DNA of 64,000 nucleotides. Origin: a virus. Made by a program: the position numbers and the translations under genes. Positions 31,818 through 35,593 of the stretch are shown piece after piece. Within the stretch, counting starts at the first letter, position 1. Each line of letters starts with the position of its first letter. The notes beneath the pieces were generated by a model. That model ran no database searches and had not been told where the DNA came from. It saw only the letters and a list, made by a program, of their open reading frames with translations. The DNA is taken from IMG/VR virus record IMGVR_UViG_3300042539_000280, positions 1 through 64,000 of that record. One strand, 5' to 3'.

Positions 31818-32010
31818 TGGACTTACGGCGTGTAGGTGCCGTCCCCATTTCATTGTCATAGTCCAGTAATGCCTTATCGATGGCCTTACGGATACCTTCA
31901 AGTCTCATGCGATAGTTGCCACGAACATGGACACGTTCCTTCTTATCTTTCAAGGTGGTGATCAATGTCTGCACCTGAAACGGAACCTCAAACTGATTCT
32001 CTTCCTTCAT
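31807..32010 (-). CDS. Hypothetical protein, 67 aa, next to gp55
   Basis: Starts at 32010 (MKEENQFEVPFQVQTLITTLKDKKERVHVRG) with GGAG 7 bp upstream, overlapping the gp55 3' end by 23 bp. Basic, with a C-terminal PTRRKSNGR tail. Position beside the late sigma factor suggests a transcription or DNA-binding accessory; not recognised. Confidence 0.6.
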   Translation of the reverse strand: MKEENQFEVPFQVQTLITTLKDKKERVHVRGNYRMRLEGIRKAIDKALLDYDNEMGTAPTRRKSNGR

Positions 32011-32560
32011 CGTCATTCTCCACAAATTTCTCTAAACCTTCTTTTTTCTCTTTGCGTTTCTCTTTTTTGACCTGTTCTCTGGCCTCAAAGTTCCTGATAA
32101 AGTCATTCAGGTTATCATACATGGTTGAGGAAATCAAGTGATTATCATCACTATCAACCATCAATGCCGCATCAGAGGTATCTAGGACACTTTCCTGAAA
32201 CTTCTTATAGATTATATAGCGATTTTTCTCCTCTTTGGAGATACGTCTATGGAAGGCATAGTAGATGATCTGAGTAAAGTAGGCAAAAGGATTACTAGAC
32301 TTGGCGGGATCAAAGTTATCGAAGTATAGAAAGCAATTCTCAATAGCATCGGAAACCAATTCATCACGGAACGAATAGTTCATAAAACGAGGCTTATGTG
32401 ACAAGTTCTCGGCAATCAAGTAGATACACTTACCAATGTATTCGGAAATACGAGGTTTTTCTTTGCCCTGATCTAAGGCCTCTCTACATTGTCTCTTATA
32501 CTCAACAATCTCTTCCAAGAATTTTACGTTATCTACATAATGCTTTTTTGCTTTTGCCAT
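31988..32560 (-). CDS. 55: Late sigma factor gp55
   Basis: 190 aa from ATG at 32560 (GGGG 6-7 bp upstream). PRISEYIGKCIYLIAENLSHKPRFMNYSFRDELVSDAIENCFLYFDNFD followed by NPFAYFTQIIYYAFHRRI is the sigma region 2-like core of T4 gp55, which recognises the late TATAAATA element. The C-terminal tail ends in LEKFVENDDEG, a hydrophobic-acidic patch in the position where gp55 binds the gp45 clamp. Confidence 0.95.
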   Translation of the reverse strand: MAKAKKHYVDNVKFLEEIVEYKRQCREALDQGKEKPRISEYIGKCIYLIAENLSHKPRFMNYSFRDELVSDAIENCFLYFDNFDPAKSSNPFAYFTQIIYYAFHRRISKEEKNRYIIYKKFQESVLDTSDAALMVDSDDNHLISSTMYDNLNDFIRNFEAREQVKKEKRKEKKEGLEKFVENDDEGRESV

Positions 32561-32561
32561 A

Positions 32562-33308
32562 CTATTCCCCAAATCCAAACGGACACTTTTTATCGTTATC
32601 TTTTATCATATTTTTACATGCTCTCCATCCATGAAAATATACCAAAGATGGATTATATGACATTTTCTTATATTCCTCTTCCGTTATCAGATGGTTTTTT
32701 ACCACCAGTTTCTTTTCCGTCAGTGGTAAAAAATTTGTAAGAGGTTGATTTACTGGTATGATAAACTTATTTTGTTCTTTTGGCAACATAATATTTACAT
32801 TAGTGAAACTATTTACCCTAAATTCCATAACTCCGGGTAATACTCTGAAAGAAAATTTATCCAAATTCCATTCCGCACCTAAATTTATAAATTTTATTCC
32901 TGTTTTTTCTTTAAAAATCCAAGGACTAGACAATTTCATATGATGATAATCTTCAAACCCCTTTCCTATCTGTTGTCTATTATGTTCTATCGGTTTATCT
33001 CCTGTCGAACAATAATAGTTATATCCTTCTTCCGAAGTTTCAACAAAAAGGTCGGCCCAATGTCGGACACATATGGAGTTTTGAAAATATTCCAAAAAAC
33101 CATAACAATTTTTTAAATTCAATCTACTCTGGTTGGTCAGAATACCCTGATCATCTTTACCTAATGTAAATTCTTCATTGGGTAGTTCTTTCCACCAGTC
33201 AGGAATAGTCTTAGATGATTTAACAATAGGAGTGAATTGATATACATGAGGTTGTGTGGTGTAACAATCCAAATGAATTTTTGGTGTTCGATGAAAAAAA
33301 CTAAACAT
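32562..33308 (-). CDS. Conserved phage protein of unknown function, 248 aa
   Basis: MFSFFHRTPKIHLDCYTTQPHVYQFTPIVKSSKTIPDWWKELPNE; IPDWWK and an aromatic, Asn-rich body recall a protein seen in marine T4-like phages, with no function I know. No membrane segment or catalytic motif is visible. A start at 33326 is also possible. The DNA is AT-rich compared with gp55. Immediately upstream is the plus-strand promoter region. Confidence 0.7.
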   Translation of the reverse strand: MFSFFHRTPKIHLDCYTTQPHVYQFTPIVKSSKTIPDWWKELPNEEFTLGKDDQGILTNQSRLNLKNCYGFLEYFQNSICVRHWADLFVETSEEGYNYYCSTGDKPIEHNRQQIGKGFEDYHHMKLSSPWIFKEKTGIKFINLGAEWNLDKFSFRVLPGVMEFRVNSFTNVNIMLPKEQNKFIIPVNQPLTNFLPLTEKKLVVKNHLITEEEYKKMSYNPSLVYFHGWRACKNMIKDNDKKCPFGFGE

Positions 33309-33334
33309 TTTATCACTTTCTTTCATTTTGGGGC

Positions 33335-33362
33335 TTGACAGGTTTTAGGAACTGTGTATAAT
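33335..33362 (+). promoter_or_regulatory. Strong plus-strand sigma-70 promoter
   Basis: TTGACA (33335-33340), 16 bp, TATAAT (33357-33362), both hexamers perfect, reading to the right against the direction of all genes. Predicted start near 33369. No plus-strand gene follows except a 13-codon ORF without a ribosome site, so an RNA product is the likeliest output. Confidence 0.65.
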
Positions 33363-33368
33363 ATTCTC

Positions 33369-33440
33369 CGAATCCAACCAACCAATAACCAAACCAAAAC
33401 CGTCGAGCGAAGCGAGACAACATGCGTAAGCATGTCCTAC
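33369..33440 (+). ncRNA. Candidate structured RNA from the plus strand
   Basis: The 72 bp after the plus-strand promoter hold a C/A-rich single-stranded stretch (CCAACCAACCAATAACC...), then a small symmetric hairpin GTC-GA-GC-GAA-GC-GA-GAC (33402-33418) whose GA/GA internal loop could form sheared pairs, then ACATGC-GTAA-GCATGT (33420-33435) with a GNRA tetraloop. These features are stable on the plus RNA and not on its complement. No terminator is seen, so the 3' end may run antisense into 33441-33698. Confidence 0.4.
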
Positions 33441-33698
33441 CTATACCTCGGTTAGAGACTTGAGTTTTGCTATCTGTTTCTTTAGTACCGGCTCACGATT
33501 GGGCCATTTGATAATAGGCTGTTCGGGGTTCTTTGCTAAGTTCTCCAACAAAGGAAGATAAATCTTCCGAATGGCCTGTAGTCTTTGCTTGAGGTCGTCT
33601 ACCTCGTCTGTAATCGGAGTTAGATCGGCTTCGTCGTCGAAAGTAAATCCGAAATCGTCTCCGCCATCTAAATCGAGATATTTATTCTTCTCTACCAT
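33441..33698 (-). CDS. Conserved T4-like hypothetical protein, 85 aa
   Basis: Acidic N-terminus (YLDLDGGDDFGFTFDDEAD) and a helical C-terminus with YLPLLENLAKNPEQPIIKWPNR. The IKWPNR ending resembles a small protein regularly found near uvsW in marine T4-like phages; function unknown. Its stop overlaps nothing, but its start overlaps the preceding gene by one base. Confidence 0.75.
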   Translation of the reverse strand: MVEKNKYLDLDGGDDFGFTFDDEADLTPITDEVDDLKQRLQAIRKIYLPLLENLAKNPEQPIIKWPNREPVLKKQIAKLKSLTEV

Positions 33699-34102
33699 TA
33701 GTGATAAACCTTCTTTTCGCTATTCTCTGCTAATTCATCCAAAACTTCTTTTATTCTATCTAAGTCTGTTCTGGATTCCGGTTCTTGTGGTTGTTCTTCG
33801 GAAACACCCGTTAGATGATCGATACTATTCCAATAGTATTCTTCCATATAGTCAGACACACTATGGGTTAGCATAACCTCAACCGCATCGATGACAAATT
33901 CCTGTGTATCACATAGTTTACTATACACCCAAGGCACAAAGGCTACTTGAAGGTAACCTGCGCCTCGGTTTGAAGTCATATATAATCCCTTGAGAGGATT
34001 CATTAGAACATAATACCTACCATTGTCATCTTCGTATTGATAACATTCCGATACAATATCATCACCGTTCTTTAGTCGCAGAAACATAACAACACCAGTC
34101 AT
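33698..34102 (-). CDS. Conserved phage protein, Sm/LSM-like N-terminus
   Basis: 134 aa. MFLRLKNGDDIVSECYQYEDDNGRYYVLMNPLKGLYM is a strand pattern like an LSM-type small barrel (compare the conserved RLKNGDDI motif of phage proteins near uvsW). The C-terminal 40 residues are acidic and helical. Possibly RNA- or protein-binding. Start could be the ATG at 34087. Confidence 0.65.
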   Translation of the reverse strand: MTGVVMFLRLKNGDDIVSECYQYEDDNGRYYVLMNPLKGLYMTSNRGAGYLQVAFVPWVYSKLCDTQEFVIDAVEVMLTHSVSDYMEEYYWNSIDHLTGVSEEQPQEPESRTDLDRIKEVLDELAENSEKKVYH

Positions 34103-34105
34103 GGT

Positions 34106-35593
34106 TTAACCTTTCATATCTATCTTATATATCTTGAACCGGAACCCTTCTTCACTGTAGACTTTTACCCTCTCCATAAAGTGCTTGAGGGTATAATTAT
34201 TTTTCTTTTTCCAACTAAAGTCGTCGGCAATGTCAAAGAGGGTGGCGGATTTCTTTGTGTCACTAATCCGAAGGCCTCTACCGATTGATTGTAGGTTACG
34301 AATCTTGGACTTGGAAGGAGATGCAAAGATGACGTTATCCAAGGCCACGATGTTAGTACCAGTGCTAAGAACACCAACGGACCCAACAAGAATAGCGTTC
34401 CGCTCGTGTTCCAGGATTTTTCTAATTTGTTCTCTATCTTCAACGTCGGTTCCTCCGTGGATAAAGAAAACCTTTCGGCCATCCTTTACCCGTTTGTTGA
34501 GCATGTCATATAGAACCTGACCATGCTTCTCAACATAGTTGAAAAACACAATCGTATTACCTTCCAATGACAATGCAAGGTTGCAAATAAATTTATTTCT
34601 TTCTTTGTTGGCGACAATATAATTGATCTCCGACTTATAGTCCGCAGATTTCATATATTGACATTCTTCCTCACTATACTTTAGCATAAGGCATTTGATA
34701 GTAAGGTCGGCCAGTTGCTTTCTCTCCATAAGTTCTTTGGAACTGATAACTTTATAGATATCACCAAAGAGACCAACGAGAGAAAAATCTACACCAGGAC
34801 CTTTTGGAAGGGTACCGGTTACACCAATACGATACTCCGCATTGACGCAGTTGGTGACGATATTAGACATCACCTTCATGTTCTGGGATTTCTCCACAGC
34901 ACCATGAACTTCATCGACTATAACATAGTCGAATCTCTTGAAATAATCTTTAGGTAAATTCTGCAAAGATTGCCAGGTGGAAATAATGAGTGGACAATCC
35001 ACATCTTTATCCTTGCCCGCATATACACGGTGACAATACTTGGACATATCCTTGCCATTCTTGGTAGAATAGTCCTGAAAGTCAGAATACATCTGTTCGA
35101 CAAGGGCAGCACGAGGAACAATTAGTAGTCCTCTCTTACCTTGTTTCATCAGATACATAAAGATCATATATTGCAATAAGGACTTACCCGAACCAGTAGG
35201 AGATATAACAATCTTCCTTTTAGAACGAATAGCATGGACGAAACCGTCCATCTGATAATCTCTGGGCGGATGCTTAGGATTTAGAGACTCAACAAATTCC
35301 TCAGCCTCGCTAAGTGAAAATGAATTGTCATAAAGTTGATCCGGATATTCTACTTCGTATCCTCTTTCCTCGGCCCATTCAACAACCTTATTAGCAAGAC
35401 CACGGTATATCTGTCTTGTGTTAGGATTGAAAGCACGGATGTATCCATCCCACAACTTTTGTTTGTAGGAAGGTACAAATTGGAATCCTTCTGGACGGAA
35501 AGCAAAGGCGTCACGGAGTTCCCATGCTACATCAACATCACAATCTACACGAATGTAGGAGTGGTTTGCATTAGAAATTTTCAACACTTTCAT
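34106..35593 (-). CDS. uvsW: RNA-DNA/DNA helicase UvsW
   Basis: 495 aa SF2 helicase. N-terminal DNA-binding domain, then Walker A SPTGSGKSLLQY (about 130), DEVH box VIVDEVHGAVE (about 225), GVTGTLPKG (motif III), FFNYVEKHGQ, and motifs V-VI in VLSTGTNI and QSIGRGLRIS. UvsW unwinds branched DNA and R-loops and turns off origin initiation late in T4 infection. An NTAAATA element lies only a few bases before the start, along with AGGTG. Confidence 0.95.
   Translation of the reverse strand: MKVLKISNANHSYIRVDCDVDVAWELRDAFAFRPEGFQFVPSYKQKLWDGYIRAFNPNTRQIYRGLANKVVEWAEERGYEVEYPDQLYDNSFSLSEAEEFVESLNPKHPPRDYQMDGFVHAIRSKRKIVISPTGSGKSLLQYMIFMYLMKQGKRGLLIVPRAALVEQMYSDFQDYSTKNGKDMSKYCHRVYAGKDKDVDCPLIISTWQSLQNLPKDYFKRFDYVIVDEVHGAVEKSQNMKVMSNIVTNCVNAEYRIGVTGTLPKGPGVDFSLVGLFGDIYKVISSKELMERKQLADLTIKCLMLKYSEEECQYMKSADYKSEINYIVANKERNKFICNLALSLEGNTIVFFNYVEKHGQVLYDMLNKRVKDGRKVFFIHGGTDVEDREQIRKILEHERNAILVGSVGVLSTGTNIVALDNVIFASPSKSKIRNLQSIGRGLRISDTKKSATLFDIADDFSWKKKNNYTLKHFMERVKVYSEEGFRFKIYKIDMKG

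What the first reader, a model, noticed from the sequence alone, without database searches (positions are those of the whole stretch)
33335..33440. Consensus plus-strand promoter driving a probable small structured RNA
In a window where every protein gene is on the minus strand, a perfect TTGACA-16-TATAAT faces right in a 114 bp gap. The downstream DNA encodes no credible protein but holds a C/A-rich linker and two hairpins: one with a GA/GA internal loop and GAA loop, one with a GUAA tetraloop. These are RNA motifs of the plus strand and would not be stable on its complement. This suggests an early phage sRNA, or an antisense regulator of the convergent small gene at 33441-33698.
Basis: partly seen in the sequence, partly recalled or inferred. 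Interest (0 to 1): 0.7.

Follow-up and report, generated by a model that had tools for sequence, protein, structure and literature searches.

The report
Conserved early phage small RNA gene
A short stretch between two genes of an uncultured T4-like virus of bacteria is very probably the gene for a small folded RNA, because about 40 distinct relatives keep the same perfect promoter and keep re-pairing the same two hairpins while the letters change; no known RNA family matches it, and what it does is unknown.

Summary
In the 114-bp gap, a perfect sigma-70 promoter (33335-33362, +) is followed by a C/A-rich linker and two hairpins. It is the only plus-strand perfect promoter among 14 found in the 164-kb phage record. 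Among 80 viral contigs fetched only by homology to the neighbouring 85-aa gene, every distinct flank with the hairpins has a perfect TTGACA/TATAAT. A hairpin pattern that did not ask for a -35 box hit 65 contigs, and all 65 are this element: 63 beside that gene, all with TTGACA, and 2 contigs of a second copy elsewhere. Both stems covary, while a tandem GA/GA mismatch is invariant (40/40 protein-anchored copies). No Rfam family matches, and isolates lack it. Best reading: an early, host-sigma-70-transcribed, trans-acting small RNA of about 65-90 nt, with a single-stranded ACC-rich 5' arm and a two-hairpin 3' domain. It is a new RNA family in an uncultured T4-like clade. Transcription, 3' end and target are not shown. 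Cis-antisense action on the 85-aa gene is possible but weaker, because a second copy sits beside an unrelated gene.

The parts
33335..33340 (+). -35 hexamer TTGACA
   Evidence: exact consensus; TTGACA in all 63 gene-adjacent relatives found by a pattern that did not ask for it
33357..33362 (+). -10 hexamer TATAAT
   Evidence: exact consensus; 0 mismatches in promoter of every distinct hairpin-bearing flank fetched through the 85-aa protein
33363..33373 (.). small dyad ATTC-TCC-GAAT directly after the -10 box, spanning the expected start site; arms covary among relatives; meaning unknown
   Evidence: 68% Watson-Crick cells against 46% shuffled, 0/5000; pair types
33370..33401 (+). predicted 5' single-stranded C/A-rich arm (start site about 33370 inferred from the -10 position)
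   Evidence: linker composition over 42 copies A 0.40, C 0.31, G 0.11, T 0.19; ACCA in 41/42 linkers against 17.8 expected
33402..33418 (+). hairpin 1: three covarying outer pairs, invariant tandem GA/GA, GC(GAA)GC cap
33420..33435 (+). hairpin 2: six-pair stem, GUAA loop here, GAA in most relatives
33441..33698 (-). convergent 85-aa gene of unknown function; its stop codon lies 5 nt beyond hairpin 2
   Evidence: no PHROG match
33698..34102 (-). 134-aa gene, conserved neighbour
   Evidence: weak PHROG matches
34106..35593 (-). uvsW helicase
32562..33326 (-). 254-aa gene, present in about a third of relatives, absent in the others
31988..32578 (-). late sigma factor (gp55-like)
   Evidence: phrog_234 E 1.4e-57

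Best explanation
The 114-bp gap holds the gene of a small non-coding RNA. Host RNA polymerase with its housekeeping sigma factor would start at about 33370 right after infection, before gp55-dependent late transcription, and make an RNA whose conserved part is about 67 nt here (59-88 nt in relatives). It has a G-poor, ACC-rich single-stranded 5' arm and a compact 3' domain of two hairpins, the first built on tandem sheared-type G-A pairs. The most likely mode is trans-acting: the hairpins give stability or a protein dock, and the open 5' arm pairs with RNA or is bound by an RNA-binding protein. Shown here: promoter, its conservation, the covarying stems, the invariant GA/GA, synteny and a second copy in one phage. 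Inferred: that it is transcribed, that it is early, where it ends, that it acts in trans, and its target.
For: Relatives were found in three ways: by promoter plus hairpin, by the neighbouring protein, and by hairpins with or without a -10 box. All three converge on the same layout. On 33 sequences, 98.6% of cells pair against 80.8% shuffled; double-sided changes 44 against 13.5; covariation 0.429 against 0.123; 0/500 shuffles reach these values, and slid structures collapse. In the protein-anchored set (40 copies, not chosen for the hairpins) hairpin 1 outer pairs are CG/TA/GC and TA/AT, hairpin 2 pairs TA/CG, AT/TA, CG/GC/AT/TA, and GA/GA is 40/40. The second pair of hairpin 1 changes 9 times and the fifth pair of hairpin 2 14 times on a tree of a neighbouring protein. 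The promoter is perfect in all distinct hairpin-bearing flanks and is the only perfect one on the plus strand of the phage. A second full-layout copy sits elsewhere in one genome. Linker length varies from 24 to 54 nt and the start codons are not shared, so a conserved peptide is unlikely.
Against: There is no transcript data. There is no U-tract after hairpin 2, although the phage has a textbook terminator elsewhere (minus strand, 36695-36670), so the 3' end is undefined. The same stems could be read as single-stranded DNA hairpins or as part of minus-strand mRNA. Target prediction for the linker among the phage's own translation starts gives nothing better than shuffled linkers. MFE folding of some relatives prefers alternative pairings between linker and hairpins.
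Confidence: 0.6

Rival explanations
1. Cis-antisense regulator: the plus-strand transcript runs on into the 85-aa gene (and perhaps further) and controls it by pairing or by transcriptional collision; the hairpins only stabilise its 5' part.
For: Convergent to that gene in 63 of 65 contigs; no terminator between hairpin 2 and the gene; distance nearly constant.
Against: A second copy with the same layout lies beside an unrelated 129-aa gene. The selected structure lies outside the gene. A more distant clade keeps the promoter but not the hairpins, so promoter and hairpins are separable.
Confidence: 0.2
2. Bidirectional or minus-strand 3' structure: the hairpins cap or end the uvsY-uvsW mRNA and the plus promoter is a separate matter (a PeSL-like promoter plus stem-loop cassette).
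For: Hairpin 2 lies directly after the stop codon of the minus-strand gene. The hairpins alone occur 3' of a minus-strand gene in another phage, with only a weak promoter-like site (L089). Strong early promoter plus stem-loop is the make-up of PeSLs.
Against: GA/GA and GNA loops are plus-strand motifs and become UC/UC and UUC on the minus strand. No U-tract in that direction either in most copies. Spacing and linker motifs are conserved between promoter and hairpins. One copy per genome, driving no gene.
Confidence: 0.12
3. DNA-level element, for example an R-loop type replication start or a single-stranded DNA hairpin site near uvsY-uvsW.
For: Sits two genes from uvsW. GC(GNA)GC and 5'-Py-GA-Pu-3' motifs are very stable in DNA too (general knowledge). 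A covarying dyad spans the expected start site.
Against: GC skew shows no switch at this place. A C/A-rich transcript is unfavourable for R-loops. A duplicated copy lies elsewhere in a genome.
Confidence: 0.05
4. RNA anti-CRISPR (Racr-like): the hairpin region mimics a CRISPR repeat of the unknown host.
For: A strong promoter followed by a solitary hairpin unit in a phage intergenic gap is the described setting of Racrs (PMC10651486).
Against: Two hairpins with a fixed mismatch core and freely covarying stems look like a structural RNA, not a sequence mimic; linker and hairpins are conserved over a whole clade.
Confidence: 0.03

Closest known systems
Phage-encoded trans-acting small RNAs (e.g. 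PreS of lambda, VpdS of VP882; list in PMC12197685)
   Same: short, structured, no protein
   Different: those listed are mostly from temperate phages or prophages; this one is in a T4-like clade, has no homologue in Rfam and no known target
CfrI antisense RNA of cyanophage S-PM2 (PMC12197685)
   Same: RNA antisense to the phage gene strand in a T4-like aquatic phage
   Different: CfrI is a longer cis antisense RNA of the psbA region; this phage has no psbA match and the conserved part here lies between genes
PeSL cassettes of T4-like phages (Arbiol 2010, Comeau 2014; cited in PMC4503421)
   Same: perfect early sigma-70 promoter with stem-loop, next to a place where a gene (254 aa) comes and goes
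   Different: single copy, opposite to all genes, drives no gene, stem-loops without U-tract, internal conserved linker
Racr RNA anti-CRISPRs (PMC10651486)
   Same: promoter plus small hairpin RNA in a phage gap
   Different: no evidence of identity with a CRISPR repeat; two hairpins with GA/GA core

Membership tests
Phage-encoded small non-coding RNA (functional class) | own promoter | tested here: met
Phage-encoded small non-coding RNA (functional class) | conserved secondary structure by covariation | tested here: met
Phage-encoded small non-coding RNA (functional class) | no conserved open reading frame | tested here: met
   linker length varies freely, start codons not shared; judged by eye, no codon-substitution test
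Phage-encoded small non-coding RNA (functional class) | transcript detected | not testable with these tools
   no expression data
Any Rfam 15 family | covariance-model match | tested here: not met
   none at gathering score in the window, none up to E 10 on 33330-33480
PeSL cassette | sigma-70 promoter plus stem-loop | tested here: met
PeSL cassette | many copies per genome | tested here: not met
   one copy in this genome; at most two in any record scanned
PeSL cassette | stem-loop is a transcription terminator and promoter drives a gene | tested here: not met
   no U-tract in most copies; no plus-strand gene downstream; termination itself not tested
Cis-antisense RNA | conserved part overlaps its target gene | tested here: not met
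   hairpin 2 ends before the stop codon of the 85-aa gene; a longer transcript is not excluded
Racr | matches a host CRISPR repeat | not testable with these tools
   host unknown; capsid protein equally near phages of Pelagibacter, Stenotrophomonas and Synechococcus
T4-type R-loop origin | replication start at the promoter | tested here: inconclusive
   no skew switch at the site, which is weak evidence in a phage with nearly all genes on one strand

The most novel reading that the evidence does not exclude
A previously undescribed family of early phage RNA, kept next to the late sigma factor and recombination genes in a whole uncultured T4-like clade, that captures a host RNA-binding factor or host RNAs through its ACC-rich arm and tandem-GA hairpin, and so is a takeover device rather than an antisense of a neighbour.
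Probability: 0.3. Interest if true: 0.75.

Novelty: new member of a known kind. Interest (0 to 1): 0.55.

Why it matters
Small RNAs of strictly lytic T4-like phages are little known. This one has strong comparative support, an unmistakable early-type promoter and a compact structure, so its expression and role can be tested at once in any cultured member of the clade. It would also mark an RNA arm of the early takeover in an uncultured phage group, and it could be added to RNA family libraries.

Tried and rejected
Known RNA families: none. Isolate phages: no DNA match of the element, and the 85-aa protein has only three distant matches, two of whose genomes have other gene neighbours. Bacterial genomes with the promoter-hairpin pattern: six unrelated places in Clostridia. 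Linker targets in the phage's own translation starts: chance level. First MAFFT alignment of whole elements (A1) misaligned hairpin 2 because of the variable linker and gave almost no covariation; replaced by the hairpin-only alignment A2 and by counts registered on the loops. psbA as a sign of a cyanophage: absent. The PeSL papers themselves are not held. In one search seven hairpin flanks show two promoter mismatches, most likely because the stretch was cut at 170 bases, with 260 bases, shows none.

Full report
WHAT IS THERE. Between two minus-strand genes (32562-33326 and 33441-33698) lies a 114-bp gap with TTGACA-16-TATAAT on the plus strand (33335-33362), then a C/A-rich stretch, then hairpin 1 (33402-33418) and hairpin 2 (33420-33435). 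Perfect promoters of this kind are about 40 times commoner in the window than in shuffled sequence (8 against 0.21). Over nearly all of the 164-kb record there are 14, and this is the only one on the plus strand. The predicted RNA folds better than shuffled sequence (z -3.6); its complement does not differ from shuffles. The claim that the complement would not be stable is too strong, since the hairpin segment of the complement still folds at -11 kcal/mol.

RELATIVES. A scan of 2.9 million viral contigs for promoter plus hairpin core gave 28 loci. A search that used only the neighbouring 85-aa protein gave 27 loci, 22 of which show the same promoter, linker and two hairpins. A profile search with that protein gave 80 loci. 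Among the distinct flanks with enough sequence, every one that has the hairpins has a promoter with no mismatch, and a more distant clade keeps a plus-strand promoter-like site at the same place without the hairpins. A last scan asked for a -10 box and the hairpins but not for a -35 box or a neighbour. It hit 65 contigs: 63 lie convergent to the 85-aa gene and all 63 have TTGACA at the right distance; the other 2 contigs carry one further copy.

STRUCTURE. Over 42 distinct elements the layout is: promoter with 16-18 nt spacer; linker of 24-54 nt, poor in G, with ACCA in 41 of 42; hairpin 1 with three covarying outer pairs, then GA/GA, then GC(GAA or GUA)GC; hairpin 2 with 5-6 covarying pairs ending in GC(GAA, GUAA or GUUA)GC. 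Pair counting with controls: 98.6% paired against 80.8%, covariation score 0.429 against 0.123, 0 of 500 shuffles, and slid versions lose everything. In the 40 copies reached only through the protein, GA/GA is invariant and the outer pairs still vary in compensated fashion. On a tree of the next gene's protein these are many separate changes. Template-switch 'repair' of palindromes could produce compensated changes without selection, but it would also be expected to mend the GA/GA mismatch, which is never mended (inference). GA/GA and GNA loops are motifs of the plus strand.

WHERE IT SITS. Gene order is late sigma (gp55) - [254-aa gene, sometimes] - element - 85-aa gene - 134-aa gene - uvsW - uvsY, all genes on the minus strand. 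In some genomes without the 254-aa gene a consensus minus-strand promoter for gp55 lies back to back with the element (read). A covariance model finds one copy in most records and a second copy in one 165-kb phage (the second locus is also seen in one related contig), again at the 3' end of a minus-strand gene, but an unrelated one.

HOW IT PROBABLY WORKS. A perfect host-type promoter implies early transcription by host polymerase (inference). The conserved RNA is about 67 nt here. The open 5' arm and the compact 3' domain are the build of a trans-acting or protein-binding small RNA. The 3' end is unexplained, because no U-tract follows hairpin 2; trimming back to the hairpins after termination further downstream would fit (inference). 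Attempts to find a target within the phage gave chance-level results. The host is unknown: the capsid protein is about 63-66% identical to phages of quite different hosts and psbA is absent. Cis-antisense control of the 85-aa gene remains possible but does not explain the second copy.

NOVELTY. No Rfam match and no isolate phage with the element. It works like known phage small RNAs but belongs to no described family that I could test. PeSL cassettes share promoter plus stem-loop but fail on copy number and on driving a gene. Racr identity could not be tested.

Noticed in passing
window 33363-33373 and the same place in relatives: A dyad with 4-nt arms and 3-nt loop begins at the first base after the -10 box and spans the expected start site; its arms covary. 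Its left arm would not be in an RNA started at this promoter, so it is unexplained.
   Followed up: partly
L136, L143, L151, L155, L175-L178, L180, L183, L187-L191, just 3' of the 85-aa gene homologue: A more distant clade has at the same place a plus-strand promoter-like site with a doubled TTGACA (TTGACA-N5-TTGACA; TGTCA-N6-TGTCA on the other strand, like a Pho box) followed by a conserved short stretch such as GGCTATGTCCGCCATGATATGAATA that could be a five-codon frame.
   Followed up: no
L068 5384-5478 (-), L097 3201-3280 (-): Second copy of the element in one phage, with -35 TTGCCA and its own dyad TGGTT-CCGGA-AACCA, at the 3' end of an unrelated gene.
   Followed up: partly
L089 1892-1925 (+): The same two hairpins with only a weak promoter-like site upstream, between two genes of another T4-like phage.
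   Followed up: partly
L067, L076, L081: Clusters of several different GNA-loop palindromes (GCGAGCGAAGCGAGC, TTCGCGTAGCGAA, ATGCGAAGCAT, GCGCGAAGCGC) in a row in other viral contigs.
   Followed up: no
window 36695-36670 (-): Strong ordinary intrinsic terminator (11-bp stem, TTCG loop, U-tract) downstream of the major capsid gene.
   Followed up: no
L105: A bacterial contig (Sinanaerobacter) carries direct repeats holding GAGCGAAGCGAG and GGCGAAGCC hairpins, resembling this pair by chance or as a repeat family.
   Followed up: no
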